DNA from: Crambe crambe
Lineage: Eukaryota; Porifera; Demospongiae; Poecilosclerida; Crambeidae
Direction of reading: 5' to 3'
Length of the DNA: 64,000 bases
Assembly: GCA_963924555.1 (NCBI GenBank)
Contig: OZ004591.1
Span: 4,340,001 to 4,404,000, forward strand
The position numbers and the translations under genes are program-made. Positions 2,240 to 64,000 of the stretch are shown piece after piece; position 1 is the stretch's first letter, and each line of letters starts with the position of its first letter. Under the pieces are notes generated by a model that had not been told where the DNA came from, ran no database searches, and saw only the letters and a program-made list of their open reading frames with translations.

Positions 2240-5200
2240 TCACTCGAATGTTTGGATATTGTCCAGGAGTTCAGCAGCCGAGGGTCTGTTGTCTTTGTCT
2301 TGCTGAAGAATGCATCGTCGGATCAAGTCCACCCAGTGCTGGTCTTGGATAGATGCTATCAACCTCTCACGAGCTGAGACTTCAGGGAATTGACAAGTGC
2401 ACATCTCGACAAGGAGAACCCCAAAACTGAAGATGTCCATCTTGGGGGACTGGAGGGAAGGGTTGTGTGCCTCTGGGGCAGCATACACAGGAGAACCTGG
2501 TCCCACAGTCTGCAGTTGCTGCTGGAAGTTGACTGAGCCATAATCGGTGACTTTTGCTCTCCAGCAATCAGAAGGCAGAGGCTCAAGGAGGACGTTGGCA
2601 CTGCTGATGTCGCGATGGACAATGGGGTCTGGCTGTATCAGGTGGAGGTAGTTGAGGGCTCTGGCCACATCTAAGCTGATGGAAGTCAGTTGATGTGCTG
2701 ACATGTGGAAATCTACCTTCTCCATTTCTCTCCTCAAACTAGTTGGCATTAGCTCCATCAATATCACCATGCCTTCATCCATGCAGGCTCCAATAAACAG
2801 CACCAAGTTAGGATGTCGAATTCTGGAAGCCATGTTCATTTCTCGTACGAATAGAGATTGGTAGTAGCCAGTCCTGATGGACTTGTAAAGCATCTTGGCA
2901 GCAACTTTGACTCCTCTGAATCTTGCAACATTCACTTCTCCCCAGCCTCCTCCTCCCAAATTCTCTTCTGTTAAGTCAATTTCTCTTCTTTGCACCACCC
3001 AATGCCTCTCATCACCTCTTCTCTCTGCCTCCCTTGCACACTGTTCAGCTTGTTGTGCTCTACTTTCTGCTTCAGTAGCTCGCTCTTCAGATGTGTGCAG
3101 TCTTCTTTCAGCTTCACATGCTCTTCTCTCTGCTTCTGTGACTCTCCCCTCGGCTGTGTGTGCTCTTCCTTCAATTTCTGCTGCCCTCCTCTCTGCTTCT
3201 CTAGCTCGTTGTTCAGCTGTTTGTCTTCCTTCTGCTTCCCATGCTCGTTGATTGGATTCTACAAGGGAAGACAATTTTAATGATTGCCACAATTGATATT
3301 GTTGAAGCAATCCAATTACCTGCTGTTAATCTCCTCTCTGCTTCTGTAGCTCTCTCCTCAGCTGTGAGCAGCCTTCTTTCAGTATCACCAGACCTCCTCT
3401 CTACTTCCCTTGCTCGTTGTTCAGCTTCATGTGCTCTTCTCTCTGCCTCTGTGACTCGATTGGACTCTACAGAGGAAGATGATAATTACAACAACTAGCC
3501 ATACCTGCTGACACTCTCCTCTCAGCTTCCCTGACTCTTTCTTCCAGATCCCTCACCACTTGGCTTATCTTCACCATTTTCTCTCTGATCCTCTCACTCG
3601 TCCCTCGCTGGCTGTTGTCAGCTACATCTGTCAGCACCCACTCTCCAGTGAGAGACTCCAACTCTGCAAGACAAAAAAAAGCATTAAGCTGGGACTGCCT
3701 CTTAGGAGAAATTTCTGACAAATCATTGAAAATATGAACATGACCTTCTGATCAACATGACATGTTGATGTTACAGTATCATCATAACTTTGTATATAAT
3801 CTGCTATCATTCACTATCTGAGCAATTGAATAGTACTATGAGCTACTTTCCTTCAATGTTGCAAAAGGAATGCAGATATTCTTCATTTTAGTGATCTGAT
3901 CTACAGGCAACATTGATTAGCTGTTCAGCGAGTGAGCTGATCATGACTCATTGTGTGTTCAGTCAGTGGATGCAGTGAGTAAAGCTGACTCTCAGGTGAT
4001 ATGAAGCCATCCAGACAGTTACATAACTATGTACATGTAGGGAACTGTAATTTTTACCACAAAGCACTTACACTTACTGACAAATGCTGTACAGTCAATC
4101 ATGTTTGCCTATTGCATTAATGCACATGCTGGACACTACTAATCATGACAGACCACCTGGTGAATTTAGAGTGTAGACCTAGATGAGTCATGAGCTATAA
4201 ATAACTAGAACTAGTTATAAAGAGTTAAATAAGTACATGTCAAAATTAACATTGCACTTTGTCCTAGTAGTATAATAAAAGGAGCCTCACCAAATCGTAG
4301 CACAGTGGTCATGGACAACTTCTTGTAGTCATCATAAGTCTTATAATTCTTTGACCACTCAGGACAACCACCAAACATGACGACCTCTGTCACTCCTGAA
4401 CTGATAGTAGAGGCAGCAGCACAATGCCAAAATCTAGACTGGAGACTTGGAACTTGGACCTGCACATCATGCATGTGTTTAAATATACACCTGTACACAA
4501 CATTTGAACAGGACAGCTGAGCTGAGTGGATATCAGCTACAGCAAAGTATGGACACATGTCTATTGTTGGATGGAGCACGTTTGGAATACTCTCATCGTT
4601 ATGACACAGTTCAGGTGAGGTATTGAGCTTGTCACTCAGTAAATCACATTCCCTTACCTCTTTCCACTTCCTTGAGTCTAGATCCAATATCCACACATCA
4701 CTTAGTGCCACATTATTAGCATCATATCCTCCAGTCATTAAAAGTTTAGGGTTGTCCCCACCATAGCCCAAACAGACTGCAACATGAGAACTTCTTTTCA
4801 TTGGACAAGGTACTCCTTCCTGATGGTCAAGTTTACTCCAGTGCTGCATAAAGGTACACAATAGGGAGAAAAATCTATCAATCAAACAATTGTATGGAGG
4901 ATAGCTATGGCACTTATTATTACAAAAAATGGCACATTTTAATCCTTATTATTCATCCATACATCTCACCATAGTAGTCAAGTCTAAGATAAATGCATCA
5001 TTACTCTTCCCTATACCAGTCTGGTAACCCCCAAACAACACTGCATGGTGGCCATCAATCATGGTAAAGGAGAAAGCAGCACAGGGAGGTGGCCTTGTCC
5101 CACTGACATTTGGGGAGGACCATGTACCTGCAATGGATTCATAGAAATATCTGTTATACATAGTAACTGAGTCTTAAATGGAGTACAGTATGTACTGATC

Positions 5201-6330
5201 ATGAAATGAAGTATTACTTCATCATGTGTAATTGTTACAGAACTATGACAAATATTAAGTTTTAGGACTGCATCTTTATAGTGAGATCTTCCAGAACTAA
5301 CAGGTATAGAGGGAAGGAGGTGTCTGGTCGAACTCTTACAATTGACTTGTTCTGGCCTGGGTACGAGGCTAGGAAGGGCTATGGAATTTTGCATGAGGAT
5401 TGTACTGTTAGTACTATGTCATAGTCAGTGAGGTATAGATAAGATGCAATGGAATGTGATACATTGCAATAGCTAACTAGTTATAAACTGCAATGGATTT
5501 GTCATCCATAAAGACAGTCTCCTATAGATAAACAGATCCCTGTCTCAAACAACCTATCACTACATGATATGATACGCCTTATGTTTAGCTGAAGTTCTTG
5601 AAGTGGCTGGTGCGACTTAGAACAAGCCGGTAACATGTATATCCCAGTTAAGAAGTGAATGTGTGATATTATTAATCATACTCAAGTGATGTCTGCTCCC
5701 TGCCTTGAATAGGTCCCATCATGTTTTAAACTTTTCCCCAGTAGCTAAAACCTTCACATTTTTCAGTGAATATTTCTATGCATTTATTGTTTGAGAACAC
5801 AATAATAATGATGCTCCCTCACCTTTTTTGAGGTCAAAGGTGTGCATCTCATTAGTCCACCCATATCCGTTAGTATCTCTTACAAAGTCTGCTCCTGATT
5901 GGGTGGGGCCTGATGGGATGCCATACCCACCAAACAATACACATTTCTCTCCCCACACAACAATACCACAGCTAATTTTCTTCATTGGACTGTCAGCACT
6001 GTGTGGTGCCAATTCCCTCCATGATGACGTCCTAGTGTTGAACTCATATAGAGATCCATAATATGACTGTTCATCACTCCCTCCATACATGTATATGTTA
6101 TGTCCTGAAGATGCACAGGCACCACTGTAGAGCCAAGGAGGAGGATCTCCTTTAGTTGTCTTTCTAGTCCAAGTCTCAAGGTAGGGATCGAAACTCTCAA
6201 TGGACACTATCTTTTTCCCTTTACTGGTAGAAAAATCTTCAGTACATCCTCCCCACATATAGATCTGTCCATCGACGGAAGAAAAGTAGGGACTGAATCG
6301 AGGAGAGGGCTCGTAGAGAGGCACTGTCAT
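2240..6330 (-). CDS. KK-A: Kelch - coiled-coil - protein kinase, intact, 7 exons, ~781 aa
   Basis: My spliced model is exons 6330-5823, 5127-4970, 4843-4658, 4459-4291, 3663-3505, 3466-3320 and 3258-2240; all junctions are GT-AG and the total of 2346 nt stays in frame. Residues 1-340 hold six Kelch blades marked by MWGG, MYGG, LFGG, LFGG, MTGG and MFGG. A conserved linker (SLTGEWVLTDVADNSQRG) follows, then a heptad EAERRA-type coiled coil to about residue 530. The kinase domain has a GGGGWGEV loop (~544), VAAK lysine (~564), HRD Asp (~659), DYG in place of DFG (~681) and APE (~703), so all catalytic residues are present. It is TKL-like by motif; substrate unknown. The Kelch propeller probably binds a protein ligand. 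No signal peptide or membrane helix, so likely cytosolic. Its stop lies about 110 bp from the convergent MCM7 relic. A 3-nt insertion gives CILQQ near the C-terminus. Confidence 0.85.
4460..4657 (-). other. Stop-free 198-nt intron between Kelch exons 3 and 4 of KK-A (possible exitron)
   Basis: The segment between donor gag|gtaag and acceptor gtgcag|gt is 198 nt, a multiple of three with no stop, so retention would add 66 residues. The same 198-nt open intron occurs in KK-B (19879-20076) and KK-F (53814-54011). In C (200 nt) and E (202 nt) its length would shift the frame, and in D an in-frame stop appears. That argues it is normally spliced, with optional retention only in A, B and F. Confidence 0.5.
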
Positions 6331-6374
6331 TTTGCACGAGCCCACCCACCTATCTAGAATGTCACGCCCACAGC

Positions 6375-7177: not shown

Positions 7178-7179
<2 letters not shown>

Positions 7180-7208
<29 letters not shown>

Positions 7209-10999: not shown

Positions 11000-14081
<3,082 letters not shown>

Positions 14082-14242: not shown

Positions 14243-17200
14243 TCACTTGAATGTTTGGATATTGACCAGGAGTTCAGCAGCTGAGGGTCTGTTGTCTTTG
14301 TCTTGCTGAATGCATCGTCGGATCAAGTCCACCCAGTGCTGGTCTTGGATGGATGCTATCAACCTCTCACGAGCTGAGACTTCAGGGAATCGACAAGTGC
14401 ACATCTCGACAAGGAGCACCCCAAAACTGAAGATGTCCATCTTGGGGGACTGGAGGGAAGGGTTGTGTGCCTCTGGGGCGGCATACACAGGAGAACCTGG
14501 TCCCACAGTCTGCAGTTGCTGCTGGAAGTTGACTGAGCCATAATCGGTGACTTTAGCTCTCCAGTGATTGGAAGGCAGAGGCTCGAGGAGGACATTGGCA
14601 CTGCTGATGTCACGATGGACGATTGGGTCTGGCTGTATCAGGTGGAGGTAGTTGAGGGCTTTGGCCACATCTAGAGAGACAGTGATGGTGAAATTGGCTG
14701 GCAAATTCTTCTGCTTCAGCTGTTGTCGTACATTGGTGGGCATCAATTCAGTGAGAATAACCATCTCTTCTTGCAGTGAAGCTCCAATGAACTGCACTAG
14801 ATTTGGGTGGCGAAGTCTCGCTGCCATGTTCATCTCTCGTATGAAGAGATCATGGTAATACTCGTACTGCAGTTCCTTGTAAAGGAGTTTTGCAGCTACT
14901 TTAGTCCCTCTGAACTTTGCAACCATCACTTCTCCCCAACCTCCTCCACCCAAATTCTCTCTCATAATGATGATTTCGTTTCTCTGCACCACCCAATGCC
15001 TCTCCTCCTCAGCTCTCCTCTCTGGCTGTCTGGTTTGTTGTAAGGACATTCTCAATCTTCTCTCTGCTTCAACTTGCTCCTCTGATATTTGAGCTCTTCT
15101 TTCAGCTTCTGTAGCTCGTCTCTCAACCTCCCTTGCTTGTTGTTCAGCTGCTTGTCTTCTTTCTGCTTCCCTGGCTCGTTGATTGGACTCTACAGGGGAA
15201 GGCAATGAATTTTATATTGGATCTCTAGAATGAAGCTCTCTCTTCAGCTATGTGCAGCTATTAGAGATTATTATACCTGCTGACACTCTCCTCTCAGCTT
15301 CCCTGACTCTTTCTTCTTGGTCCCTTATCACTTGGCTCATCTTCATCATTTTCTCCCTGATCCTCTCACTTGTCCCTCGCTGGCTGTTGTCAGCTACATC
15401 TGTCAGCGCCCACTCTCCAGTGAGAGACTGCAACTCTGCAAGACAGCAAAAATAATAGCATTAGAAGCTGGGACTGCCTCTTATTAGGAGAAATTTCTGA
15501 CCAAAATATGAACACGATCTTCTGATCAACATGACATGTAGATGTTACAGTATTATATATAATCTATCATTCACTATCTGATGAGCTACTTTCCTTCAAT
15601 GTTTCTAAAGGAATGCAGATATTCTTCATTCTAGTGATCTGATCTTCAGGTAACATTGATTAGCTGTTCAGCGAGTGAGCTGATCATGACTCATTGTGTA
15701 TTCAGTCAGTGGATGCAGTGAATAAAGCTGACTCTCAGAATTCATCGTACATGTAGGAAACTGTAATTATTACCACAAAGCACTTACACTTACTGTGGTA
15801 GACTAACACTATAACTATATTAGTATTGTTTATGTAATCATTATTATGGTAATTATGTAATCATACATCACTATTGATATTTTACTCCAGACTACTTAAG
15901 TCATTTCCTCTTGTCATTATGTCAGTTGTGGAGTTGTTGTCTATCATCAGAGAGTGCGGTAGCACTCTCTATGTAGGGTTAGTACGGAATGGGCATGGCT
16001 TCTCTCATTAGAACAATACAAATTAGACTCTCTGCATCTCTTTTACTCGTGCTACAGGCTCAACTAAACTTCTTATATCTGTAGTAGAGTGGCTTAAGGG
16101 AAAAATATTGCATGATGTTTACACGGTGGATAAAAGCATGAAATTTTTGGGGGGAGTTTATATGATCATATAGAACAGAAAAAGGACTGGCTGCAAAAAT
16201 TTTGACAAACAGTGTATGTGCTTAGGCCTCTTTTTGTCGAAAACGCGAAAATAGCACAAACATAGCGCGAAAATACCCAATTTGGATGGCATGTGGTACC
16301 AGAGAATGAAAGTGAAGAAAATGATACACCTTTGCTTCGACATCACAAAGAAGGGTTTGCTGCACAGCTGCAGCAAGCCCAAAGTCTTATTGACACAATC
16401 AATGGCTTTGGTATTCCCTTTGAGGATGACTGTCCTGAGCTTCTTGTATTGAACACACATGCATGTGCAGATGATTTGGTCTTTGAAACTGTGAAGTCCC
16501 TTGAAGCTCTAGGAGAGGCAAAGTATCAGGAGTATAAAAGGAAGTTATCACAGAGCGATTGAAGTCCATTCATGATGCAATAAAGAAAAACTCTCTGGCA
16601 CTGTTCAGTTCACCTAAACAGAACCCAAGACATCACAGGAACTAACAGTTCAAAGAAGTAATACCAGTCTTTTTGGTAGGTTATACATCGCCAATCAACA
16701 GCATGAAGGAGACCCTGCAGAATTCTTCTTGCATGAAAATCAAACCACTCCCCCCTCTTTGTTTGGTAAAATCCGGCTTGGACAGAAGTCACTCCTATTA
16801 TCATGTGCAGATCCTAGCGATCAATCTCCATGTCCTCTTTTTGAATGCAAGATTTTGATGGTGCTGCTGTGGTGCACTTTTTATCACCAAAAGCAATTAA
16901 CCAACACCTTTGCAGACTATGCGCAGCTGACCAACCCTTTTTCTTGCAACAGTTAGAAGGTACAAGCAGAGTTGACTTAGTTTGGGATCGGTACCTTGCT
17001 AAGGTTTGACTAGAGGAAGTGGAGTGAGAATTAAGGTATCTTCACAGTCAAGAAATGGGAAGGCTTTCTGCGTGAGTCCCAAAACAAGACAGAATTATTT
17101 TCGAAGGTGGCCAATGTTAATGTTCCTGAACACAAATCAGTTTATGTTACATCAGGTATAGCTATGTATGTGTCAGTATAAATGCATAAGTGACTTTTTG

Positions 17201-20200
17201 TTGTAATGTTATAGATGATCGAGTGCTCTGTATTGGTAGCGAGTGGCAGATGGCCAATTCAGACCATGAAGAAGCATCACACTTCATGTCTAAGACTCAT
17301 TAGAGAGTGGTTTGAGGAAAATTATGATCTGTACCGTGGACACTGATGTAGTTGTCATTCGGATTGGTGAATTTCACAATAATATGGTTGATAACTACCC
17401 CAATGCAGAACTATTGGAACAGGATCCGTTATTACAGCATCAATGTAAATTGTACTCATTTAGGAAGAGAATGATCCCATTGTCTCCTTGCATTTCATGC
17501 TTTTACTGGGTGTGATATAACATCCTCATTTTTTGGAAGAACCAAGAGCACTGCATGGGCTACTTGGAATACTTATCCAGAAATCAATGAAGCTTTTGTT
17601 TTCATGTACATGCAAAGATTACACAATGTACTCCAACATGTGAAGCGAGCTGTTTTCCAGAGCAGTGTTTGGACCACCAGCCATCAATCTATTCAGAATG
17701 TTCCTTCCCCAGATGAATGGGGTTGGATAAAAGATGATATGGTCATGGATGGGTACCTGTCTGGATGACCATCCCTGAAGAAGCAAGAGCTTCCAGTGAA
17801 CTGATCAATTGTGAGTGCAAATCTAACAGAGGATGTACCAGTTATAAATTCATCAAGGCAGGCTAATTTGTGTACTTGCAAATGTGAAATTTAATGATGT
17901 TATAGCACTAATGTGATTTTCGTGCTGATTTTCGCGTTTTCAACAAAAAGAGGCCTAAGCACACACACTGTTCATCAAAATTTTTGCAGCCAGTCCTTTT
18001 TCTGTTCTATATGATCATAATATAAACTCCCCAAAAAATTTTCACACTTTTGTCCGCCGTGTAAATAAAAACCTCTAAGCCACTCTACTAATGCAGAAGA
18101 TGATGATATGACCACTCAAACTCCTCCAGAACGGCATCAACCATCGGCACCAGCCGCCGCCTAAATCTAAAATTTTTATGATTCATTCATCAGATTCAAT
18201 AAATATTCTTTGACGGCTGTAACTCCATGGTCCTTTTACATACGACAATGAAATTCTTATCAATTTGCGCAGTTATAACCACACAATGTGCTTTTACCAC
18301 CGTTATATCCAACAGTTTCCCTTCAAAATAATCACTCATATCGAACGACTTTTCATTATAACTATGTCAGCCATTTTGAAATGACATCATTTGTCATGCG
18401 CGTGCATCTGCCACTATCACGTGCATGTACACACGTGCCAACCAGCTTATTATTCACAAAAAGTAAACAAACAAGTGAAAAATTATGCTAAATAAAAAGG
18501 CCATGTAGGGTTAGTCTGTACTTTGACAGTTTCTGTCAACAAAAATCAAAATTATGCTGCCTTCAATAATAACCCCTACATCACCAAGCAGAACACTCTT
18601 ATACTGACATGAACAATTAAAGCAGCTTGGTGGGAGGCAATGATGTAGGGATTATTATTGAAGGCAGGATTATTTTGATTTTTGTTGACAGAAACTGTTA
18701 AAGTACAGACTAACCCTACATTATTTAGCATAAATTTTACATTTGATATCCTGCGTGCAAGAGTTACTACACTTACTGACAAAATGCATCATGTTTGCCT
18801 ATTGCATTAATGCACATGCTGGACATTACTAGGTCACCTGGATGAGTCATGAGCTAGACTATACCTAGTCTGAATAGAGCAATTTGATTGGTCAGTTGTA
18901 AGTTTCTACATACTGCATAGTATCCTGCCTATCCGAACCACACCGAAATCCAAACCACAAAGCCCCCCAAGCACTTAGATATCCAATTTTTTTTATGAAA
19001 ATCCCATGACAACAATAATAGTTCATTTTTTGCATCATGGTTCTTTGACTTTTTCCAATCCTCTCTTGATGCAGTATTCAGTGTCAGCTCTTGTTTTCTG
19101 AGGTATGGACTCTTTTCTTGCTTGAGCTACTTCTTCAGCTGTCTTGGGCAATGCAAAGCGTTCTAGAGGTGTTTTATTGTCTCCAGCCCCTCCTCCACAT
19201 GCACACTTCCTCTTCCTTTGCTAGTTTGAGAAAGATTTTGTCAATTTCCTCTGTCGCCAAGGGGCGGTTTCTTCAGGTGCATAGTCTTCACAAAGCCCCC
19301 ATGCACTGCACCAAGGTTTGCCAAGACAGGCATACTGCTGGCATTCATCAATAATTTCTTGGCCGTTTTTATCGAAGCATTTTGCTAGCTGTCCACTGTC
19401 GACAACTATCGTGTAGGAATTTTAGCTTATTACTTGCATGCAGACCGTTGCTACCATAAAAATAATTGCTCTAAATAAGTTAGACACCTCGGCCAATAGA
19501 ATTCACGGTCTTAGAAACCTTCAGGGCCTTTAGTAGAGGCCTCACTTCACTCAGCCTCCACAGCCCAAGGCCCTTCAGGTTTCTAAATTCTGTAGATTCC
19601 AGACCTTGGTGTCTAACTATTATCTAGAACTAGCTATAAAGAGTTTAAAAAGTACATGTCAAAATTAACATTGCACTTTGTCCTAGTAGTATAATAAAAG
19701 GAGCCTCACCAAATCGTAGCACAGTGGTCATGGACAACTTCTTGTGGTCATCATAAGTCTTGGGATTCTTTGGCCACTCAGGAGAACCACCAAACATGAC
19801 AACCTCTGTCACTCCTGGACTGATAGTAGAAGCAGCAGCACAATGGAAATATCTAGACTGGAGACTTGGAACTTTGACCTGCACATCATGCATGTGTTTA
19901 AATATACACCTGTACACAACATTTGAACAGGACAGCTGAGCTGAGTGGATATCAGCTACAGCAAAGTATGGACACATGTCTATTGTTGGATGGAGCACGT
20001 TTGGAATACTCTCATCATTATGACGCAGTTCAGGTGAGGTATTGAGCTTGTCACTCAGTAAATCACATTCACTTACCTCTTTCCACTTCCTTGAGTCTAG
20101 ATCCAATATCCACACATCACTTAGTATCACATTATTATCATCAAGTCCCCCAGTCACTAGAAGTTTAAGGTTGTCCCCACCATAGCCCAAACAGACTGCA

Positions 20201-42815: not shown

Positions 42816-42984
42816 TAGCTAATTATATCCATACATACTATAGGTGATTAAAACCACAAAGATAAAGTAAACTGCATGCATTGGCAGGTTAGAGGATATA
42901 AATAAGTTGAAGGTAGGGTGTATAATATAGACCACGAGCACATAACTGATTAAAAGTATTTCATACACTCGGATTACAAACCAT

Positions 42985-44095: not shown

Positions 44096-45424
<1,329 letters not shown>

Positions 45425-45579: not shown

Positions 45580-48500
45580 TCACTGGAATGTTTGGATATT
45601 GTCCAGGAGTTCAGCAGCTGAGGGTCTGTTGTCTTTGTCTTGCTGAATGCATCGTCGGATCAAGTCCACCCAGTGCTGGTCTTGGATGGATGCTATCAAC
45701 CTCTCACGAGCTGAGACTTCAGGGAATCGACAAGTGCACATCTCGACAAGGAGCACCCCAAAACTGAAGATATCCATCTTGGGGGACTGGAGGGAAGGGT
45801 TGTGTGCCTCTAGGGCAGCATACACAGGAGAACCTGGTCCCACAGTCTGCAGTTGCTGCTGGAAGTTGACTGAGCCATAATCGGTGACTTTAGCTCTCCA
45901 ACGATTGGAAGGCAGAGGTTCGAGGAGGACATTGGCACTGCTGATGTCGCGATGAACGATCGGGTCTGGCTGTATCAGGTGGAGGTAGTTGAGGGCTTTG
46001 GCCACATCTAGAGAGACAGTGATGGTGAAATTGGCTGGCAAATTCTTCTGCTTCAGCTGTTGTCGTAGATTGGTGGGCATCAATTCAGTGAGAATCACCA
46101 TCTCTTCTTGCAGTGAAGCTCCAATGAACTGCACTAGATTTGGGTGGCGAAGTCTCGCTGCCATGTTCATCTCTCGTATGAAGAGATCATGGTAATACTC
46201 GTACTGCAGTTCCTTGTAAAGGAGTTTTGCAGCTACTCTGGTCCCTCTGAACTTTGCAACCATCACCTCTCCCCAACCTCCTCCACCCAGATTCTCTCTC
46301 GTGATGATGATTTCATCTCTCTGTACCACCCAATGCCTCTCCTCCTCAGCTCTCCTCTCTGGCTGTCTGGTTTGCTGTAAGGACATTCTCAATCTTCTCT
46401 CTGCTTCAACTTGCTCCCCAGATATTCGAGCTCTTCTCTCAGCTTCTGTAGCTCGTCTCTCAGCTTCTCTTGCTTGTTGTTCAGCTGTTTGTCTTCTTTC
46501 TGCTTCCCTAGCTCGTTGATTGGACTCTACAGGGGAAGGCAACTAATTTTAATCTAGCTCTCTCCTTAGCTATGTGCACTATCCCTTCAGGTTTATAGAA
46601 ATTTTGCAGATTGGGGATCATGGAAGCTATGTTCTCTATTGTAGCCCTGCTATTAGAGATTATAATACCTGCTAACACTCTCCTCTCAGCTTCCCTTGCT
46701 TGTTGTTCAGCTGCTTGTCTTCTTTCTGCCTCTAGAGGAGGAAGACATGAATGTAACTCTCTCTTTAGCTATGTCCCACTATCCCTTCAGCTATTAGATA
46801 TTATTATACCTGCTGACACTCTCCTCTCAGCTTCCCTGACTCTTTCTTCTTGGTCCCTCATTCTTTCTTCTTGGTCCCTCATCATTTGGCTCATCTTCAT
46901 CATTTTCTCCTTGATCCTCTCACTTGTCCCTCGCTGGCTGTTGTCAGCTACATCTGTCAGCATCCACTCTCCAGTGAGGGACTGCAACTCTGCAATGCAA
47001 CAAAAAATAATAGCATTAGAAGCTGGGACTGCCTCCTAATTAGGAGAGAAATTTCTGACCAATCATTGAAAATAACAACCTTCTGATGGACATGTTGATA
47101 TGTTACAGTATCATCATAACTCTGTATATAATCTGCTATCATTCACTCTCTGAGCAATTGAATAGTACTATGAGCTACTTTCCTTCAATGTTGCTAAAGG
47201 AATGCAGATATTCTTCATTTTAGTGATCTGATCTACAGGCAACATTGATTAGCTGTTCAGCGAGTGAGCTGATCATGACTCATTGTGTGTTCAGTCAGTG
47301 GATGCAGTGAGTAAAGCTGACTCTCAGATGATATGAATCCATCCAGACAGTTACATAACTATGTACATGTTGGGAACTAATTTTTACCACAAAGCACTTA
47401 CACTTACTGACAAAATGCTGTACAGTCAATCATGTTTGCCTATTGCATTAATGCACATGCTGGATACTACTAATCATGACAGACCACCTGGTGAATTTAG
47501 AGTGTAGACCTAGATGAGTCATGAGCTATAAATAATTAGAACTAGTTATAAAGAGTTAAATAAGTACATGTCAAAATTAACATTGCACTTTGTCCTAGTA
47601 GTATAATAAAAGGAGCCTCACCAAATCGTAGCACAGTGGTCATGGACAGGTTCTTGAGGTCATTGTTAGTCTTATAATTCTTTGGCCACTCAGGACAACC
47701 ACCAAACATGATAATCTCTGTCACTCCTGGACTGATAGTAGAGGCAGCAGCACAATGCGAAAATCTAGACTGGAGACTTGGAACTTGGACCTGCACATCA
47801 TGCATGTGTTTAAATATACACCTGTACACTATATTTGAACAGGACAGCTGAGCTGAGTGGATATCAGCTACAGCAAAGTATGGACACATGTCTATTGTTT
47901 GATGGAGCACATTTGGAATAGCTACTCTCATCGTTATGACACAGTTCAGGTGAGGTATTGAGCTTGTCACTCAGTAAATCACATTCCCTTACCTCTTTCC
48001 ACTTCCTTGAGTCTAGATCCAATATCCACACATCACTTAGTGCCACATTATTAACATCACGTCCCCCAGTCATTAAAAGTTTAGGATTGTCTCCACCATA
48101 GCCCAAACAGACTGCAACATGAGTACTTCTTCCCACTGGATGAGGTATTCCTTCCTGATGGTCAAGTTTACTCCAGTGCTGCATAAAGGTATACAATAGG
48201 GAGAAAACCTATCCATGGCACTTATTATTAAAGAAGCAGTTTAATACCCTTATCACTCATCCATACATCTCACCATAGTGGTCAAGTCTATGATAAATGC
48301 ATCATTACTCCTCCTTAGGCCAGATTGTTTACCCCCAAACAACACTGCATGGTGGCCATCGATCATGGTAAAGGAGAAACCAGCACAGGGAGGTGGCCTC
48401 GTCCCACTGACAGTAGGGGAGGACCATGTACCTGCAATGGAGTCATAGGAATATCTATTACGTTGTAACTGAGTCTTAAATGGAGTACTGTATGTACTGA

Positions 48501-49452
48501 TCATGAAATGAATTCATGAGGATTGTACTGTTAGTACTACAGTGAGGTATAGATAAGATGCAATGGAATATGATACATTGCAATAGCTAACTAGTTATAA
48601 ACTGCAATGGATTTGCCATCCATAAAGACAGTCTCCTATAGATAAACAGATTCCTGTCTCAAGCAACCTATCACTACATGATATGATACGCCTTATGTTT
48701 AGCTGAAGTTCTTGATGTGGCTGGTGTGACTTAGAACAAGCCGGTAACATGTATATCCCAGTTAAGAAGTGAATGTGTGATATTAATGATTATGTGGGCA
48801 CACTCAAGTGATGTCTGCTCCCTGCCTTAAATAGGTCCCATCATGTTTTAAACTTTTCCCCAGTACCTAAACCTTCAGATTTTTCAGATAATGTACTTGT
48901 TGTGTGAGATCACAATAATAATGATGCTTCCTCACCTTTTTTGAGGTCAAAGGTGTGCATCTCATTAGTCCACCCACGTTCATCAGTAAGACTATTATCT
49001 CTTATAAAGTCTGCTCCTGACTGGGTGGGGCCTGATGGGATGCCATACCCACCAAACAATACACATTTCTCTCCCCACACAACCATACCACAGGAATGCT
49101 TCTTCATTGGACTGTCAGCACTGTGTGGTGCCAATTCCCTCCATGATGACGTCCTAGTGTTGAACTCATATAGAGATCCAAAATATGACAGTCCATCAAA
49201 CCCTCCATACAAGTAGATGATATGTCCTGAAGATGCACAGGCACCAAGGTAGAACCAAGGGGGAGGGTCTCCTTTAGTTGTCTTTCTTGTCCAAGTCTCA
49301 AGGTAGGAATCGAAACTCTCAATGGACACTATCTTTTCCCCTCTACTTGTTGAAAAATCTTCAGTACGTCCTCCCCACATATAGATCTGTCCATCGAAGG
49401 AAGAAAAGGAGGGACTTAATCGAGGAAAGGGCTCGTAGAGAGGCACTGCCAT
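45580..49452 (-). CDS. KK-E: Kelch - coiled-coil - kinase, open frame, ~739 aa, APE changed to ALE
   Basis: My exons are 49452-48936, 48431-48274, 48178-47993, 47790-47622, 46989-46810, 46731-46669 and 46526-45580; 2220 nt, in frame, GT-AG. The start MAVPLYEPFPR is shared with C. Six Kelch GG motifs, a linker exon with a duplicated RDQEERMRDQEERV block, and a single 63-nt coiled-coil cassette. The kinase is N-lobe type 2 with an intact lysine, HRD and DYG, but the APE triad at the end of the activation segment reads ALE (YAALEAHNP), from CCA to CTA. That Pro is structural rather than catalytic, so activity may be lowered. Its N-terminal half pairs with C while its kinase pairs with B and G, so the gene is a mosaic. 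Confidence 0.84.
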
Positions 49453-50547: not shown

Positions 50548-53500
50548 TCACTGGAATGTTTGGATATTGTCCAGGAGTTCAGCAGCTGAGGGTCTGTTGT
50601 CTTTGTCTTGCTGAATGCATCGTCGGATCAAGTCCACCCAGTGCTGGTCTTGGATGGATGCTATCAACCGCTCACGAGCTGAGACTTCAGGGAATCGACA
50701 AGTGCACATCTCGACAAGGAGCACCCCAAAACTGAAGATGTCCATCTTGGGGGACTGGAGGGAAGGGTTGTGTGCCTCTGGGGCGGCATACACAGGAGAG
50801 CCAGGTCCCACGGTCTGCAGTTGCTGCTGGAAGTTGACTGAACCATAATCGGTGACTTTAGCTCTCCAACGATCAGAAGGCAGAGGCTCAAGGAGGACAT
50901 TGGCACTGCTGATGTCGCGATGAATGATTGGATCTGGCTGTATCAGGTGAAGGTAGTTGAGGGCTCTGGCCACATCTAAACTGATGGAAGTCAGTTGATG
51001 TGCTGAAATGTGGAAATCTTCCTTCTCCTCCATTTCTTTCCTCAAACTAGTTGGCATTAGCTCCATCAATATCACCATGCCTTCATCCATGCAGGCTCCA
51101 ATAAACAGCACCAAGTTAGGATGTCGGATTCTGGAAGCCATGTCCATCTCTCGCATGAAGAGATCTTGGTAGTAGCCAGTCCTGATGGACTTGTAAAGCA
51201 TCTTGGCAGCAACTTTGACTCCTCTGAATCTTGCAACCTTCACTTCTCCCCAGCCTCCTCCTCCCAAACTCTCTTCTGTGATGTCTATTTCTCTCCTCTG
51301 CACCACCCAATGCCTCTCATTAGTACCTCTGCTTTCTGCCTCCCTCGTATGCTGCTGCTCAGTTTGTGCCCTTCTCTCTGCTTGAGTAGCTCGCTCCTTA
51401 ACTTCTTGCACTCTTCTTTCAGCTTCATGCATTCTTCTCTCTGTTTCAGTAGCTCGCTCTTCAACCACGTGCACTCTCCTTTCAGCTTCATGTGTTCTCA
51501 TCTCAGCTTCTGTAACCCTCTGCTCTGCTTCTCTTACGTGTTGTTCAGATGCTTGTGCTTCCTTGGCTCGTTGATCAGACTCTATAAATGCGATTAAAAG
51601 GCTACATTCTTATGATTTTGAAAATGCAATGTGCAGCCATTTTTTTCTGCTTTCTATTTATCTTAGCTGCTGTATAATTGCTTGTTAAACTAAATGTAAA
51701 TAGTGACATTCCATGTCCTCAAGTTCATCCTCTAAATTTTGAAGGCTAATTTTTCCCCTCCTCGACAGAAATATATGTACCTGCGGATATTCTTTTTTCA
51801 GCTTCTGTTGCTCTTTCCTTGGCTATGTGCACTCTTTTTTCAGCTTCTCTGACTCGTTCAGCTGCTTGTACTTCCCTTGCTTGCTGATCAGACTCTGAGA
51901 GAAAATTGGCAATTTTAAAGCTAACAACTGATCTATCGAAGTCAAGAAAGGGAAGGAGAGAGTATCTAGAATAATAAACTGCAATGAAAATTGAGTAGCT
52001 GTGTTGCTTCTACATGTACAAATGATCAGCATAAGGACTTTCAATATGGACCCTTCAAAATATCTGAGATATCCACTATAGGGTTATACCTGCTGATATT
52101 CTCCTCTCCACTTCTACAGCAGCCCTCTTCTCTGCTTCTGTAGCTCTCTCCTCAGCTGTGTGCATTCTTCTTTCAGCTTCACGTCCTCTTCTCTCTGCCT
52201 CTGTGACTCGTTCTTCAGCTAAGCGTGCTCTTGCTTCCATTTCCGTAATCATATTCTCTGCTTCTCTAGCTCGTTGTTCAGCTGTTTGTGCTCTTTCTGT
52301 TTCCCTGGCTATTTGTTCTATAGGAGAACATCAAAGGAAAGTCAATGTCAATAGTAAATCCACATTTCTACCAGTTTGGCACCCTCTCTCTCATTGACAG
52401 GAAAATTATTAATTGAAGCTATAGATATACAGAGAAACAATTCTTCTACATATTATAGATGGCTAATCTTACCTGCTGATATTCTCTCTGCTTCTGTAGC
52501 TCTCTCCTCAGCTGTGTGCAGTCTTCTTTCAGTATCCCCAGACCTCCTCTCTGCTTCTCTTGCTCGTTGTTCAGCTTCACGTGCTCTTCTCTCTGCTTCT
52601 GTGACTCGATTGGACTCTACAAAGGAAGATGATGATTAGCTACAACAATGATGTCTAGGATATTAAGTCCAGCTACCTGTTAATAATCTCCTCTCTGCTT
52701 CTGTAGCTCTCTCTTCAGCTATGTGCACTCTCCTTTCAGCTTCATGCACTTGATTGGATTCTATAGGAGAAATGCAGTAATGAATATGTTTCCTGCTGAA
52801 GAGTTATTTACACCTAACCATACCTGCTGACATTCTCCTCTCAGCTTTCCTGACTCTTTCTTCAAGATCCCTCACCAATTTATCCCTTCCAGCTACATCC
52901 ACTGGTCTTGCTGCTACTGCACTCTGAGTATTTTGACTCATCTTCACCATTTTCTCCCTGATCCTCTCACTTGTCCCTCGCTGGCTGTTGTCAGCTACAT
53001 CTGTCAGCACCCACTCTCCAGTGAGGGACTGCAACTCTGCAAGACAACAAAAATAATAGCCTTGTGAAGCTGCCTATTAGGAGAAATTTCTGACCATTCG
53101 TTGAAAATATGAACATGACCTTCTGATAAACATGACATGTTGATATGCTACAGTATCATCATTACTCTGTATATAATCTGCTTATCATTCACTATCTGAT
53201 CTGAGCAATTGAATAGTACTATGAGCTACTTTCTTCAATGTTGCTAAAGGAATGCAGATATTCTTCATTCTAGTGATCTGATCTACAGGCAACATTGATT
53301 AGCTGTTCAGTGAGTGAGCTAATCATGACTCATTGTGTATTCAGTCAGTGGATCAGTGAGTAAAGCTGATTCTCAGGTAAACTATGTACATGTAGGAAAC
53401 TAATTTTTACCACAAAGCACTTACACTTACTGATAAAATGCTGTACAGTCAATCATGTTTACCTATTGCATTAATGCACATGCTGGATACTACTAATCAT

Positions 53501-55462
53501 GACAGACCACCTGGTGAGTTTAGAGTGTAGACCTAGATGAGTCATGAGCTATAAATAACTAGAACTAGTTATAAAGAGTTAAACAAGTACATGTCAAAAT
53601 TAACATTGCACTTTGTCCTAGTAGTATAATAAAAGGAGCCTCACCAAATCGTAGCACAGTGGTCATGGACAACTTCTTGAGGTCATTGTCAGTCTTATAA
53701 TTCTTTGGCCACTCAGGACTACCACCAAACATGACAACCTCTGTCATTCCTGGACTGATAGTAGAGGCAGCAGCACAATGCATAAATCTTGACTGGAGAC
53801 TTGAAACTTGGATCTGCACATCATGCATGTGTTTAAACATACACCTGTACACAACATCTGAACAGGACAGCTGAGCTGAGTGGATATCAGCTACAGCAAA
53901 GTATGGACACATGTCTATTGTTTGATGGAGCACCTTTGGAATACTCTCATCGTTATGACACAGTTCAGGTGAGGTATCGAGCTTGTCACTCAGTAAATCG
54001 CATTCACTTACCTCTTTCCACTTCCTTGAGTCTAGATCCAATATCCACACATCATTTAGTGTCACTTTATTAGCATCACGTCCCCCAGTCATTAAAAGTT
54101 TAGGATTGTCTCCACCATAGCCCAAACAGACTGCAACATGAGTACTTCTTCCCACTGGACGAGGTATTCCTTCCTGATGGTCAAGTTTACTCCAGTGCTG
54201 CATAAAGGTACACAATAGGGAGAAAAATCTATCAATCAAACAATTGTATGGAGGATAGCTATGGCACTTATTATCACAAAAAATGGCATGTTTTAATCCT
54301 TATTATTAATCCATACATCTCACCATAGTGGTCAAGTCTAAGATAAATGCATCATTACTCCTCCCTATACCAGGCTGGTAACCCCCAAATAACACTGCAC
54401 GGTGGCCATCAATCATGGTAAAGGAGAAACCAGAACAGGGAGGTGACCTTGTCCCACTGACATTTGGGGAGGACCATGTACCTGCAATGGATTCATAGAA
54501 ATATCTGTTATGTAGTAACTGAGTCTTAAATGGAGTACAGTATATGTACAGATCATGAAATGAAGTATTACTTCATCATGTGTAATTGTTACAGAACTAT
54601 GACACTGGTGAAGTTTTAGGACTGCATCTTTATAGTGAGATCTTCAAAAACTAACAGGTATAGAGGGAAGGAGGTGTCTATAGATAAACAGATTCCTGTC
54701 TCAAGCAACATGATATGATATACCTCTTGTTTATATCTGAAGTTCTTGAAGTGGCTGGTGTGACTTAAAACAAGTTGGTAACATGTATATCCCAGTTAAG
54801 AAGTGAATGTGTAATATTAATGATTATATGGTCCCTGCCTTTAATAGGTCCCATCATGTTTTAAACTTTTCCACAGTACCTAAAACCTTCAGTGAATATT
54901 TCTATGCACTTGTTGTGTGAGACCACAATATTAATAATGATGCTCCCTCACCTTTTTTGAGGTCAAAGGTGTGCATCTCATTAGTCCACCCACATCCATC
55001 AGTATGCCTATTATCTCTTACAAAGTCTGCTCCTGACTGGGTGGGGCCTGATGGGATGCCATGCCCACCAAACAATACACATTTCTCTCCCCACATAACC
55101 ATACCACAGAAATACTTCTTCATTGGACTGTCAGCACTGTGTGGTGCCAATTCCCTCCATGATGACGTCCTAGTGTTGAACCCATATAGAGATCCAAAAT
55201 ATGACAGTCCATCAATCCCTCCATACAAGTAGATGATATGTCCTGAAGATGTACAGGCACCATAATAGTGCCAAGGGGGAGGGTCTCCTTTAGTTGTCTT
55301 TCTTGTCCAAGTCTCAAGGTAGGGATCGAAACTCTCAATGGACACTATCTTTTTCCCTCTACTTGTACAAAAATCTTCAGTACTTCCTCCCCACATATAG
55401 ATCTGTCCATCGACGGAAGAAGACAAGGGAGAGAATCGAGGAGAGGGCTCGTAGAGAGCCAT
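50548..55462 (-). CDS. KK-F: Kelch - coiled-coil - kinase, intact, 10 exons, ~946 aa (longest)
   Basis: My exons are 55462-54952, 54481-54324, 54197-54012, 53813-53645, 53036-52824, 52760-52677, 52616-52473, 52317-52090, 51894-51781 and 51581-50548; 2841 nt, in frame, all GT-AG. Six Kelch GG motifs, a linker exon with AARPVDVAGRDKLV, then four separate coiled-coil cassettes (84, 144, 228 and 114 nt), each starting and ending in phase 1. The heptad helix is about 300 residues and highly charged, so it may be a rigid single helix or a long dimer. The kinase is N-lobe type 1 with lysine, HRD, DYG and APE all present, and one extra Glu (MEEKEDF). It is the intact sister of D. It could form higher-order assemblies, but that is inference. 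Confidence 0.86.
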
Positions 55463-57844: not shown

Positions 57845-60156
<2,312 letters not shown>

Positions 60157-60292
60157 CACATGGATAGTGAATGTTATAAAGCTCCTGTTACACCAACTTT
60201 TTATTTAGAAATAACTTTGTCGATAAAAATAATATTAACTTTCAAAACCTATACAACTAAACTAACTTTTTGTGTGTGTATGTGTTCAGAGT

Positions 60293-63200
60293 TCACTCGA
60301 ATGTTTGGATATTGTCCAGGAGTTCAGCGGCTGAGGGTCTGTTGTCTTTGTCTTGCTGAATGCATCGTTTGATCAAGTCCACCCAGTGATGGTCTTGGAT
60401 GGATGCTATCAACCTCTCACGAGCTGAGACTTCAGGGAATTGACAAGTGCACATCTCGACAAGGAGCACCCCAAAACTGAAGATGTCCATCTTGGGGGAC
60501 TGGAGGGAAGTGTTGTGTGCCTCTGGAGCGGCGTACACAGGAGAACCTGGTCCCACAGTCTGCAGTTGCTGCTGGAAGTTGACTGAGCCATAATCGGTGA
60601 CTTTAGCTCTCCAGCGATTGGAAGGCAAAGGCTCGAGGAGGACATTGGCACTGCTGATGTTGCGATGGATGATCGGGTCTGGGTGTATCATGTGGAGGTA
60701 GTTGAGGGCTTTGGCCACATCTAGAGAGACAGTGATGGTGACATTGGCTGGCAAATTCTTCTGCTTTAGCTGTTGTCGTAGATTGGTGGGCATCAATTCA
60801 GTGAGAATCACCATCTCTTCTTGCAGTGAAGCTCCAATGAACTGCACTAGATTGGGGTGGCGAAGTCTCGCTGCCATGTTCATCTCTCGTATGAAGAGAT
60901 CATGGTAATACTCGTACTGCAGTTCCTTGTTAAGGAATTTTGCAGCTACTCTGGTCCCTCTGAACTTTGCAACCATCATCTCTCCCCAACCACCTCCACC
61001 CAAATTCTCTCTCGTGATGATGATTTCGTCTCTCTGCACCACCCAATGCCTCTCCTCAGCTTTCCTCTCTGGCTGTCTGGTTTGCTGTGATCTTCTCTCT
61101 GCTTCAATTTGCTCCTGATGTCTTCTCTCAGCTTCTTCAGCTCGCCTCTCAGCTTCCTTTACTTGTTTCTCAGCTGCTTGTCTTTTTTCTGCTTCCCTGG
61201 CTTGTTTATTGGACTCTACAGGAGAAAGCAATGATTGTACAATAATTATAACTCTCTCTTCAATTATGTGCACTATCCCTTCAGCTATTATACCTGCTGA
61301 CAATCTCCTCTCAGCTTCCCTGACTCTTTCTTCTTGGTCCCTCACCACTTGATTCATCTTCACCATTTTCTCCCTGATCCTCTCACTTGTCCCTCGCTGG
61401 CTGTTGTCAGCTACATCTGTCAGCACCCACTCTCCAGTGAGAGACTGCAACTCTGCAAGATAACAAAAATAACAGCATTGCGAAGCTGGAACTGCCTTGC
61501 ATTAAGAGATTTTGATCAGCTGTTCAGCGAGTGAGCTGATCATGACTCATAGTATGATTCGGGTGATATGAATCCATCCATCCAGTTACAATTACAGTTA
61601 GGTCTGTAATGTCACAAAGCACTTACACTTACTGACAAAATGCTGTACAGTCAATCATGTTTGCCTATTGCATTAACAGACCACCTGGTGAATTTAGAGT
61701 GTAGACCTAGATGAGTCATGAGCTATAAATAACTAGAACTAGTTATAAAGAGTTAAATAAGTACATGTCAAAATTAACATTGCACTTTGTCCTAGTAGTA
61801 TAATAAAAGGAGCCTCACCAAATCGTAGCACAGTGGTCATGGACAACTTCTTGTAGTCATCATCAGTCTTATAATTCTTTGACCACTCAGGACAACCACC
61901 AAACATGACAACCTCTGTCACTCCTGGACTGATCGTAGAGGCAGCAGCACAATGCATAAATCTTGACTGGAGACTTGGAACTTGGACCTGCACATCATGC
62001 ATGTGTTTAAATATATACCTGTACACAACACTTGAACAGGACAGCTGAGATGAGTGAAGTATAAACACATGTCTATTGTTTGATGGAGCACATTTGGAAT
62101 ACTCTCTCACAGTTCAGGTGACTGAGGTATCGAGATTGTCACTCAGTAAATCACATTCCCTTACTTCTTTCCACTTCCTTGAGTCTAGATCCAATATCCA
62201 CACATCACTTAGTGCCACATTATTAGCATCACGTCCCCCAGTCATTAAAAGTTTAGGATTGTCTCCACCATAGCCCAAACAGACTGCAACATGAGTACTT
62301 CTTCCCACTGGACGAGGTATTCCTTCCTGATGGTCAAGTTTACTCCAGTGCTGCATAAAGGTACACAATAGGGAGAAAATCTATCAATCAAACAATTGTA
62401 TGGAGGATAGTTATGGCACTTATTATTACCAAAAATGGCACATTTTAATCCTTATTATTCATCCATACATCTCACCATAGTAGTCAAGTCTATGATAAAT
62501 GCATCATTGCTCCTCCCTATACCAGTGTGGTAACCCCCAAACAACACTGCACGGTGGCCATCAATCATGGTAAAGGAGAAACCAGCACAGGGAGGTGGCC
62601 TTGTCCCACTGACAGTAGGGGAGGACCATGTACCTGCAATGGATTCATAGAAATATCTGTTACATGTAACTGAGTCTTGTACAGATCATGAAATGAAGTA
62701 TTACTTCATCATGCATAATTGTTACAGAACTATGACACTGATGAAGTTTTAGGACTGCATCTTTATAGTGAAATCTTCCAGAACTAACAGGTATGGAAGG
62801 AGGTGTCTGGTCAAACTCTTACAATTGACTTATTCTGAATATCAACTTTTTTCTTGGTATTTACATCATGTGATATCATGGAAGGGCTATAGCCTCGTAT
62901 TCTGGCCTATTTTTTAGGCCTAGGTACGAGGCTAGGAAGGGGTATGGAATTTTGCATGAGGATTGTACTGTTAGTACTATGTCATAGTCAGTGAGGTATA
63001 GATAAGATGCAATGGAATGTGATACATTGCAATAGCTAACTAGTTATAAACTGCAATGGATTTGCCATCTATAAAGACAGTCTCCTATTAATAAACAGAT
63101 TCCTGTCTCAAGCAACCTACATAAGTAAAATATCGACCCACTTGATATGATATTATGTCTGTTGTTTTTAAATTTATGAGATGTCAGGATACGACAGACT

Positions 63201-64000
63201 AAAAGCCTTACAAGCTTCAAAATCAGCATAGTGACTTAGATCTGGATAGAAGTATGATTGATGGCCGTTTCAACCACTGCAAAGGAGACAGGCAAGCGTT
63301 AGGGATACAAGACTGAAAGCCTGCATGCAAGCTTCAAGTAACTTGGAATACGCATGCGCAATGTAATAATTAAGAACTGATCCAGTATGCTGGATCATGG
63401 AGTCACCAGACCCTTCGGTCTTATTGCGCGAGGGGCGGCTATGCCAGACTATAGTTCTTGAAGTGGCTGGTGTGATTTAGAACAAGCTGGTAACATGTAT
63501 ATCCCAGTTAAGAAGTGAATGTGTGATATTAATGATTATATGGGCATGGCCTTAAATAGATCCCATCATGTTTTTAAACTTTTCCCCAGTACCTAAAATC
63601 TTCAGATTTTTCTTTCTGTGCACTTTGTGTGAGACCACAATAATAATGATGTCCCTCACCTTTTTTGAGGTCAAAGGTGTGCATCTCGTTAGTACACCCA
63701 CTTCCATCAGTACGATTATCTTTTCTTACAAAATCTGCTCCTGACTGGGTGGGGCCTGATGGGATGCCATACCCACCAAACAGTACACATATTTCTCCCC
63801 ACACAACCATACCATGACCCCATTTCTTCATTGGACTGTCAGTACTGTGTGGTGCCAATTCCCTCCATGATGACGTCCTAGTGTTGAACTCATATAGAGA
63901 TCCATAATATGACTGCCCATCAAGCCCTCCATACGTGTAGATGATATGTCCTGAAGATGCACAGGCACCATAGTAGCACCAAGGGGGAGGGTCTCCTTTA
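60293..64000 (-). CDS. KK-G: Kelch-kinase, 5' end beyond the window, HRD changed to HRN (predicted pseudokinase)
   Basis: My exons are 64000(partial)-63660, 62633-62476, 62350-62165, 61987-61819, 61452-61294 and 61215-60293. Frames join cleanly through the visible part. The Kelch motifs and SLTGEW linker are present. There is no separate coiled-coil cassette; the helix (SNKQAREAEKRQ...) lies in the kinase exon. The kinase is N-lobe type 2 with lysine, DYG and APE kept, but the catalytic-loop Asp is Asn (IIHRNISSANVLL, codon near 60658-60660), which should abolish phosphotransfer. The 78-nt last intron (61216-61293) is stop-free and in frame, so retention would add 26 residues. The whole coding frame is otherwise open, so the gene may be kept as a non-catalytic member. 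Confidence 0.82.
62890..62934. mobile_element. 45-bp mini foldback in KK-G intron 1
   Basis: TAGCCTCGTATTCTGGCC faces GGCCTAGGTACGAGGCTA across a short T-rich loop. It is the counterpart of 33614-33658. Confidence 0.6.
63155..63450. other. Unique insert in KK-G intron 1
   Basis: These ~300 bp are absent from intron 1 of the other KK genes. They include GATCCAGTATGCTGGATC (a palindrome, near 63380) and a GC-rich end. No coding seen; probably another small mobile repeat. Confidence 0.4.

What the first reader, a model, noticed from the sequence alone, without database searches (positions are those of the whole stretch)
2240..64000. Tandem array of seven Kelch-coiled-coil-kinase genes
Seven paralogues, all on the minus strand, share an architecture of six Kelch blades, a SLTGEWVLTDVADNSQRG-type linker, a charged heptad helix and a TKL-like kinase. 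I know of no well-described animal family with Kelch repeats N-terminal to a kinase joined by a long helix. Five are fully open across 6-10 exons, so they are likely expressed and useful, for example as a diversified sensor set (inference).
Basis: partly seen in the sequence, partly recalled or inferred. Interest (0 to 1): 0.8.

Follow-up and report, generated by a model that had tools for sequence, protein, structure and literature searches.

The report
Hypervariable Kelch-headed kinase gene array
A sponge-like animal genome carries a long row of closely related kinase genes whose Kelch propeller heads differ mainly at the residues expected to touch a bound molecule, which is the pattern of a diversified recognition-receptor family rather than of ordinary duplicated or dead genes.

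Summary
The seven minus-strand Kelch–linker–coil–TKL-kinase genes are real: six are open end to end in my models, W4 has a stop in its kinase, and W7 has HRN for HRD. They belong to an array of at least 22 kinase and 23 close Kelch units over about 330 kb.

The diversifying codons lie on one face of the propeller (32 of 167 loop codons against 0 of 66 on the other; loops assigned by eye). All six residues after a blade's GG are positive. Without any tree, diversity there is roughly 6–9 times that of introns. The kinases lack the pattern; two other Kelch clusters, and relatives from unnamed contigs, share it. Kelch exons are mosaic and independent of kinase type, so heads are exchanged among outputs. 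Best explanation: soluble, repeat-headed recognition receptors, plausibly for immunity or self/non-self. Expression, ligand and function are untested.

The parts
2240..6330 (-). W1 gene, 781 aa: Kelch exons 6330-5823, 5127-4970, 4843-4658, 4459-4291; linker 3663-3505; coil 3466-3320; coil+kinase 3258-2240
   Evidence: open, all AG/GT; kinase type A
14243..21713 (-). W2 gene, 709 aa: Kelch exons 21713-21203, 20533-20376, 20262-20077, 19878-19710; linker 15435-15277; coil+kinase 15189-14243
   Evidence: open, all AG/GT; kinase type B
30532..34628 (-). W3 gene, 734 aa: Kelch exons 34628-34112, 33345-33188, 33061-32876, 32675-32510; linker 31870-31709; coil 31629-31546; coil+kinase 31463-30532
   Evidence: open, all AG/GT; kinase type A
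35724..40663 (-). W4 gene: Kelch exons 40663-40162, 39466-39309, 39182-38997, 38825-38657; linker 38044-37835; coil 37784-37641, 37489-37262; coil+kinase 36754-35724 with an in-frame TGA in the kinase
   Evidence: codon 676 of 876 is a stop; Kelch part open; probable pseudogene or truncated product
45580..49452 (-). W5 gene, 739 aa: Kelch exons 49452-48936, 48431-48274, 48178-47993, 47790-47622; linker 46989-46810; coil 46731-46669; coil+kinase 46526-45580 (ALE for APE)
   Evidence: open, all AG/GT; kinase type B
50548..55462 (-). W6 gene, 946 aa, reference copy: Kelch exons 55462-54952, 54481-54324, 54197-54012, 53813-53645; linker 53036-52824; coil 52760-52677, 52616-52473, 52317-52090, 51894-51781; coil+kinase 51581-50548
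   Evidence: open, all AG/GT; kinase type A
60293..64000 (-). W7 gene, 703 aa: Kelch exons 64176-63660 (runs past the window), 62633-62476, 62350-62165, 61987-61819; linker 61452-61294; coil+kinase 61215-60293 (HRN for HRD)
   Evidence: open, all AG/GT; kinase type B; catalytic Asp replaced
53814..54011 (-). Intron hidden in the apparent third Kelch exon (W6 coordinates; homologous in all 23 copies looked at)
   Evidence: GT..AG in 23 of 23 copies; frame broken in 14 of 23; distant relatives match its two sides as separate exons

Best explanation
This is part of a tandem array of soluble, repeat-headed recognition receptors. A six-bladed Kelch propeller presents one hypervariable face that binds a ligand; a conserved linker and a variable number of in-phase coiled-coil exons join it to a TKL-type kinase that gives the output. 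Shown from sequence: the architecture, the array, diversifying selection concentrated on one predicted face and its absence from the kinase, mosaic exchange of Kelch exons, and re-use of the Kelch head with at least one other output end. Inferred: that the face binds varied ligands, that the coil oligomerises, that ligand-driven clustering activates the kinase, that the protein is soluble, and that the purpose is recognition of microbes or of non-self.
For: Site selection on 21 distinct Kelch copies: 36 of 346 codon columns diversifying and 36 purifying at PP>0.9. M1a -5390.4 against M2a -5186.6; 10 null simulations gave 0 or 1 positive site each. Exon-specific trees: 34 positive, 30 shared. 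All six blade GG+1 residues positive (p 9e-7; 5 of 6 with exon trees) and 10 of 18 residues just before the next strand's conserved G/H. Loops by topology: 32 of 167 on one face, 0 of 66 on the other, 4 of 108 in strands. Tree-free diversity: introns 0.046-0.061, four-fold sites 0.055, GG+1 codon positions 1+2 0.418, pre-G/H 0.341, rest 0.059. Aligned KLHDC2 pocket residues: 4 of 8 positive, mean entropy 1.56 against 0.38. Kinase: omega 0.63, M2a gains only 2.6 lnL. Two separate Kelch clusters: M2a over M1a by 18.4 and 44.3 lnL; 3 of 5 and 7 of 11 positive positions homologous. Kelch identity does not follow kinase type. 21 distinct combinations at 18 key residues among 22 copies.
Against: No transcript, protein or ligand data. 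Selection is inferred among paralogues that recombine, so tree-based values are approximate; the tree-free figures do not depend on a tree. With exon trees only 3 of 8 KLHDC2-aligned residues stay positive (p 0.036) and 2 of 66 sites on the other face become positive; one of the eight, aligned to W191, is nearly invariant. Third positions of the pre-G/H codons are also raised (0.143). Loops were assigned by eye, after seeing the data, with no structure. The GG+1 idea came from seven copies that are among the 22 tested. One of seven window kinases has a stop and another lacks the catalytic Asp. The two controls with other clusters rest on the first Kelch exon only.
Confidence: 0.62

Rival explanations
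1. The Kelch face is diversified for docking different endogenous substrates or partners (for example C-terminal peptides), so the array is a set of kinases with different targets rather than an immune or non-self system.
For: The solved structure matching nearly the whole propeller is KLHDC2, a C-degron receptor, whose pocket aligns with variable residues. Kinases are mostly intact: VAAK and DYG 24 of 24, HRD 23 of 24.
Against: Endogenous targets would rarely demand an omega of about 7.5 at many codons, ongoing exchange and near-unique combinations (the 'rarely' is my judgement). The same face varies in the 2.0-2.6 Mb cluster, where no kinase was found and the one gene read on has a ROC/COR-like end.
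Confidence: 0.2
2. Allorecognition: the Kelch heads are polymorphic self-markers or self-sensors used when sponge individuals meet.
For: Hypervariability with exchange resembles fungal incompatibility NLRs, whose repeat domains are reported hypervariable, under positive selection and undergoing concerted evolution (passages). P0084, on an unnamed contig, is a W6-like exon differing at three residues by eye, one of them a GG+1.
Against: No obvious membrane anchor in the models (inspection only; no prediction was run), and many paralogues rather than one polymorphic locus. No segregation data.
Confidence: 0.12
3. Relaxed or decaying duplicates: omega near 1 because most copies are dead.
For: Kelch M0 omega is 0.99. 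W4 has a stop, W7 HRN. About 28% of kinase codons fit omega near 1 or above.
Against: 22 of 23 Kelch regions keep all four exons open with AG/GT; 36 sites are purifying; diversity at GG+1 and pre-G/H codons is roughly 6-9 times that of introns, which relaxation cannot give.
Confidence: 0.03
4. A mutational hotspot or gene-conversion artefact, not selection, makes these codons variable.
For: Exchange among copies is strong. Third positions of pre-G/H codons stand at 0.143, above the 0.055 of four-fold sites.
Against: Within the six GG+1 codons positions 1+2 differ at 0.418 but position 3 at 0.082 (interval 0-0.214), and in pre-G/H codons 0.341 against 0.143. Homologous positions vary in separate clusters and in relatives on unnamed contigs.
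Confidence: 0.03

Closest known systems
KLHDC2 and related Kelch C-degron receptors
   Same: Kelch propeller of the same Pfam family (PF24681); KLHDC2 is the solved match that spans nearly the whole propeller (residues 9-317); its ligand pocket aligns with variable residues
   Different: KLHDC2 recognises a fixed C-terminal di-glycine degron for ubiquitination (passages); here the pocket is hypervariable and a coiled coil plus kinase follows
KEAP1/KLHL BTB-Kelch proteins
   Same: Six-bladed Kelch; KEAP1 residues contacting Nrf2 are listed, and their register (after GG, and in the preceding loop) is recalled as the same two loop classes
   Different: No BTB match in the W6 model; not known to me as hypervariable arrays (recalled)
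Fungal NLRs with WD40/ANK/TPR repeats (HET-E group)
   Same: Repeat head reported hypervariable, under positive selection, exchanged among members and joined to different N-terminal domains (passages of PMC4986451)
   Different: They have a NACHT/NB-ARC switch; none matched in the W6 model. Heads are WD40/ANK/TPR, not Kelch
Kelch-Ephrin_rec_like-kinase protein P0026 (unnamed contig)
   Same: Kelch repeats N-terminal to a PK_Tyr_Ser-Thr kinase
   Different: Extra Ephrin_rec_like segment and an apparent membrane span (seen by eye); weak overall match (34% over 21%)
Sponge NLR repertoires (e.g. Dysidea avara)
   Same: Expanded sponge repeat-headed sensors; NACHT-WD40, NACHT-Zu5 and NACHT-Ank architectures are mentioned (passages of PMC12909245)
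   Different: NACHT-centred; kelch was not among the terms I looked up in that paper; 'positive selection' and 'hypervariable' occur 0 times in its main text

Membership tests
Kelch propeller (KLHDC2-type, PF24681) | Six Kelch motifs scoring over the family cut-off | tested here: met
   151 bits against 50; six blade GG motifs at W6 25-26, 81-82, 132-133, 203-204, 261-262, 315-316; a seventh GG at 251-252 lies in a loop of the other face
TKL-group protein kinase | Nearest solved kinases belong to TKL | tested here: met
   best matches CTR1, TAK1, MLK4, TNNI3K; the group name TKL is recalled; no tree was made
Active protein kinase | VAIK Lys, HRD Asp and Asn, DFG Asp | tested here: met
   VAAK 24/24, HRDxxxxN 23/24 (W7 HRN), DYG 24/24; one of the 24 (W4) also has a stop; activity itself not testable
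Diversified recognition receptor family (works like) | Positive selection concentrated on the binding surface of the repeat head and not in the output domain | tested here: met
   the surface is predicted, not solved
Diversified recognition receptor family (works like) | Binds varied non-self or self ligands and triggers a response | not testable with these tools
   no binding or expression data
NLR / STAND receptor | NACHT or NB-ARC domain | tested here: not met
   no such Pfam match in the W6 model at E 0.001
BTB-Kelch (KLHL) E3 adaptor | BTB/BACK domain | tested here: not met
   no BTB or BACK match in the W6 model at E 0.001
KLHDC2-type CUL2 adaptor | Cullin/Elongin-binding helix after the propeller | not tested
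   not searched for
Pseudogene array | Broken frames and absence of constraint | tested here: not met
   22 of 23 Kelch regions open, 6 of 7 window genes open, 36 purifying Kelch sites of 346, 82 of 257 in the kinase

The most novel reading that the evidence does not exclude
Sponges carry a previously unrecognised class of soluble innate receptors: Kelch propellers with a hypervariable ligand face, kept diverse by selection and exon exchange in tandem arrays, and plugged into interchangeable outputs (TKL kinase types A and B; ROC/COR-like GTPase ends). A related kinase end is also found behind a giant ankyrin-like array. It would be a combinatorial receptor repertoire without NACHT, LRR or Ig domains.
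Probability: 0.45. Interest if true: 0.92.

Novelty: new variant of a known kind. Interest (0 to 1): 0.82.

Why it matters
Large diversified recognition repertoires are known from Ig-fold, LRR, NLR and lectin-like families (recalled). A Kelch propeller used this way, with selection concentrated on its predicted ligand face and with interchangeable outputs, would add a new recognition scaffold. It would also give sponge immunity or self-recognition a concrete set of genes and residues to test. It shows as well that a mean dN/dS near 1 can hide strong diversification.

Tried and rejected
Relaxed decay was rejected by open frames, purifying sites and diversity far above introns. A mutational hotspot was judged unlikely because positions 1+2 vary far more than position 3 in the same codons. 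The long third exon (184 aa open in W6) was first taken at face value, then rejected as wholly coding because its middle is broken in 14 of 23 copies. A first coil-exon search misplaced some borders. The first full models of W1, W3 and W4 were off at single borders and were corrected. NCBIfam gave only bacterial kinase names far below their cut-offs for the kinases. Structure prediction was not used, because joined exons are not letter-for-letter readings of the DNA, so the face assignment rests on topology and on the alignment to KLHDC2. Literature: PMC6208332 passages list 'Kelch motif containing' genes down after microbial patterns in two sponges, and PMC11000336 mentions Kelch-type propellers once; neither passage describes this architecture.

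Rows dropped before counts: K4116 (no first two Kelch exons) from all codon work; the two diverged Kelch units at 4.12 and 4.41 Mb from everything; K4208 (identical to K4126) from site tests; K4208 and K4239 from diversity and mosaic tests; L070 (duplicate of L061) from one cluster's site and diversity tests. In one search several exons were cut short by the donor pattern I used, so their last columns are gaps. The two kinases at 5.34 and 5.61 Mb are in the 24-kinase omega but not in the diversity figures. The query left out four of W6's coil exons.
Full report
SETTING. For an unrelated kinase of this genome the first listed hit that bears an organism name is from Halichondria panicea (58%), and a weak relative of the Kelch part is from Amphimedon queenslandica (26%). 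I take it for a sponge; this is an inference.

THE OBSERVATION. Seven minus-strand units carry kinase frames and share long direct repeats of about 82-96% identity. Spliced models have 6-10 exons with AG/GT at every border: W1 781 aa, W2 709, W3 734, W5 739, W6 946, W7 703, and W4 with a stop at codon 676 of 876. Pfam puts Kelch (151 bits) and Pkinase (114 bits) over their cut-offs in W6. Linker and coil exons join in the same phase in the models, so their number can vary without breaking the frame; this accounts for most of the 703-946 aa range. One correction concerns the third Kelch exon, which hides an intron.

SIZE OF THE ARRAY. A whole-genome search finds 22 kinase copies between C14:4115918 and 4445844, all minus, at 79-100% identity, plus two at 92-93% at 5.34 and 5.61 Mb (counts are lower bounds). 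Kelch searches find 23 close units in the array, two diverged ones that I did not analyse (4.12 and 4.41 Mb), and many more distant ones elsewhere on C14. The kinases fall into type A (13 copies, 96% alike) and type B (9 copies, 96% alike), 81% between types. First Kelch exons equal or nearly equal to array copies also occur on unnamed contigs of other lengths in the protein database. That speaks against an artefact of this one assembly, but those contigs may come from the same specimen.

SELECTION ON THE KELCH HEAD. Of 23 units, 22 keep the four Kelch exons open. On 21 distinct copies a codon model gives mean omega 0.99, but 36 of 346 columns are diversifying and 36 purifying at PP>0.9. M2a fits better than M1a by 203.8 lnL units, with classes of 52% at omega 0.07, 36% at omega 1 and 12% at omega 7.5; ten null simulations gave three positive sites in all. 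The code is my own grid method, not HyPhy. Because copies recombine (homoplasy statistic below all 500 permutations at 54 non-selected sites), I repeated the site test with exon-specific trees (34 positive sites, 30 shared) and looked without any tree. In the tree-free form, nucleotide diversity is 0.054, 0.061 and 0.046 in three introns and 0.055 at four-fold sites, but 0.418 at codon positions 1+2 of the six GG+1 residues and 0.341 at the pre-G/H residues; the remaining codons stand at 0.059 and the strands at 0.032. Third positions are 0.082 in the GG+1 codons (six columns only) and 0.143 in the pre-G/H codons.

WHERE THE SITES ARE. Before the test I noted, from the seven window copies, that the residue after each GG and the residues before the next strand's G/H looked variable (note). 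In the test 6 of 6 and 10 of 18 are positive (5 of 6 and 10 of 18 with exon trees); a seventh GG of the sequence, in a loop of the other face, was not counted as a blade GG. By Kelch topology the B-C and D-A loops lie on one face and the A-B and C-D loops on the other: 17 of 84 and 15 of 83 positive against 0 of 31 and 0 of 35, and 4 of 108 in the strands (loops assigned by eye). With exon trees the figures are 28 of 167 against 2 of 66. The match to a solved natural protein that spans nearly the whole propeller is KLHDC2. Its ligand residues K147, Y163, R189, W191, R236, R241, S269 and W270 (passages) align with W6 118, 134, 157, 159, 205, 211, 241 and 242. Four of the eight are positive (three with exon trees), three more are variable, the one aligned to W191 is nearly invariant, and mean entropy is 1.56 against 0.38 overall.

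CONTROLS. In the kinase, omega is 0.63 with 3 diversifying and 82 purifying of 257 columns, and M2a gains only 2.6 lnL. Two other Kelch clusters on C14, at 5.33-5.70 Mb (11 first exons, 10 distinct, 40-45% identical to W6) and at 2.02-2.61 Mb (15 first exons, 38-47%), are separate genes from those tested above. Their first Kelch exon shows M2a gains of 18.4 and 44.3 lnL, and 3 of 5 and 7 of 11 positive positions are homologous to positive positions here (p 0.009 and 1e-5). Four-fold diversity there is 0.098 and 0.064, against 0.36/0.43 and 0.33/0.32 at GG+1 and pre-G/H codons (for the 5.3 Mb cluster the third GG+1 column was taken one place early). Thirteen relatives at 46-52% identity, from unnamed contigs, also vary more at these sites (entropy 1.30 against 0.71, p 0.0009), though W6 position 65 is invariant there and 7 of the 15 most variable positions of the tightest ten are not positive sites here.

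MODULES ARE EXCHANGED. Kelch identity within and between kinase types is the same (difference 0.002, permutation p 0.28, 20 copies), although the kinases differ by 19%. Nearest neighbours change from exon to exon. The gene at C14:5.34 Mb, inside the other cluster, joins a Kelch that is only 60% and 49% identical to W6 in two exons to a linker (83%) and kinase (92%) like those of this array. One gene read on in each of the 2.0 and 5.4 Mb clusters ends not in a kinase but in a long exon with a P-loop-like motif and a weak COR-A match (23.4 and 21.6 bits, below the 35.3 cut-off), followed by repeats that look like ZU5 (recalled; no Pfam match). On C13 a related kinase (59%) lies in an 8104-residue open frame; the 5 kb read there are ankyrin-like repeats by eye and then a coil.

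MECHANISM. Most likely the Kelch face binds a ligand, the coil assembles the protein, and assembly activates the kinase. Only the first step has sequence support, through selection. Kinase residues are intact in most copies; W7 may act as a pseudokinase partner or be dead. No signal peptide or membrane span is evident by inspection of the models, so a cytosolic place is assumed.

KNOWN OR NEW. The parts are known families. The pattern resembles fungal NLRs, whose repeat heads are reported hypervariable and positively selected (passages), but no NACHT/NB-ARC was found in the W6 model, so this is not an NLR. Among the rows listed by the searches I saw no paper on hypervariable Kelch receptors or Kelch-coil-kinase arrays. 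Only open-access papers are searched, searches listed part of their matches, and of the papers opened I read passages only.

Noticed in passing
window 280-651, 12973-13374, 44997-45374 (+): Pieces of an MCM helicase gene lie tail to tail with kinase 3' ends and were duplicated with the unit (PF00493 matches over the cut-off in the first two, a weak MCM_lid match in the third; repeats).
   Followed up: partly
L059 5941-9085; L058 5125-7999 (C14:2.07 and 5.42 Mb): Related Kelch genes end in a P-loop/COR-A-like exon and ZU5-like repeats instead of a kinase.
   Followed up: partly
C13:2745198-2745944 and L086: A related kinase sits in an 8104-residue open frame; the 5 kb fetched are near-identical ankyrin-like repeats followed by a coil. 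Six such kinases lie at C13:2.67-2.83 Mb.
   Followed up: partly
C14:4122993-4124993 and C14:4412621-4414632 (-): Two diverged Kelch units inside the array (65-73% to W6) that were left out of the counts.
   Followed up: no
K4126, K4208, K4295 (C14:4.13, 4.21, 4.30 Mb): Three very recent duplicates: two have identical Kelch exons, the third differs mainly in the first exon.
   Followed up: no
K4239 (C14:4239283): A Kelch unit with open exons but no kinase match listed nearby; its output end is unknown.
   Followed up: no
window 41946-42820: A tandem repeat that is open in three frames and reads as GYPWLFMVI-like repeats.
   Followed up: no
C14:6.02-6.37 Mb, C14:4.64-4.67 Mb, C9:0.75 Mb: Further diverged kinase copies (55-60%); those on C14 have Kelch exons nearby.
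   Followed up: no
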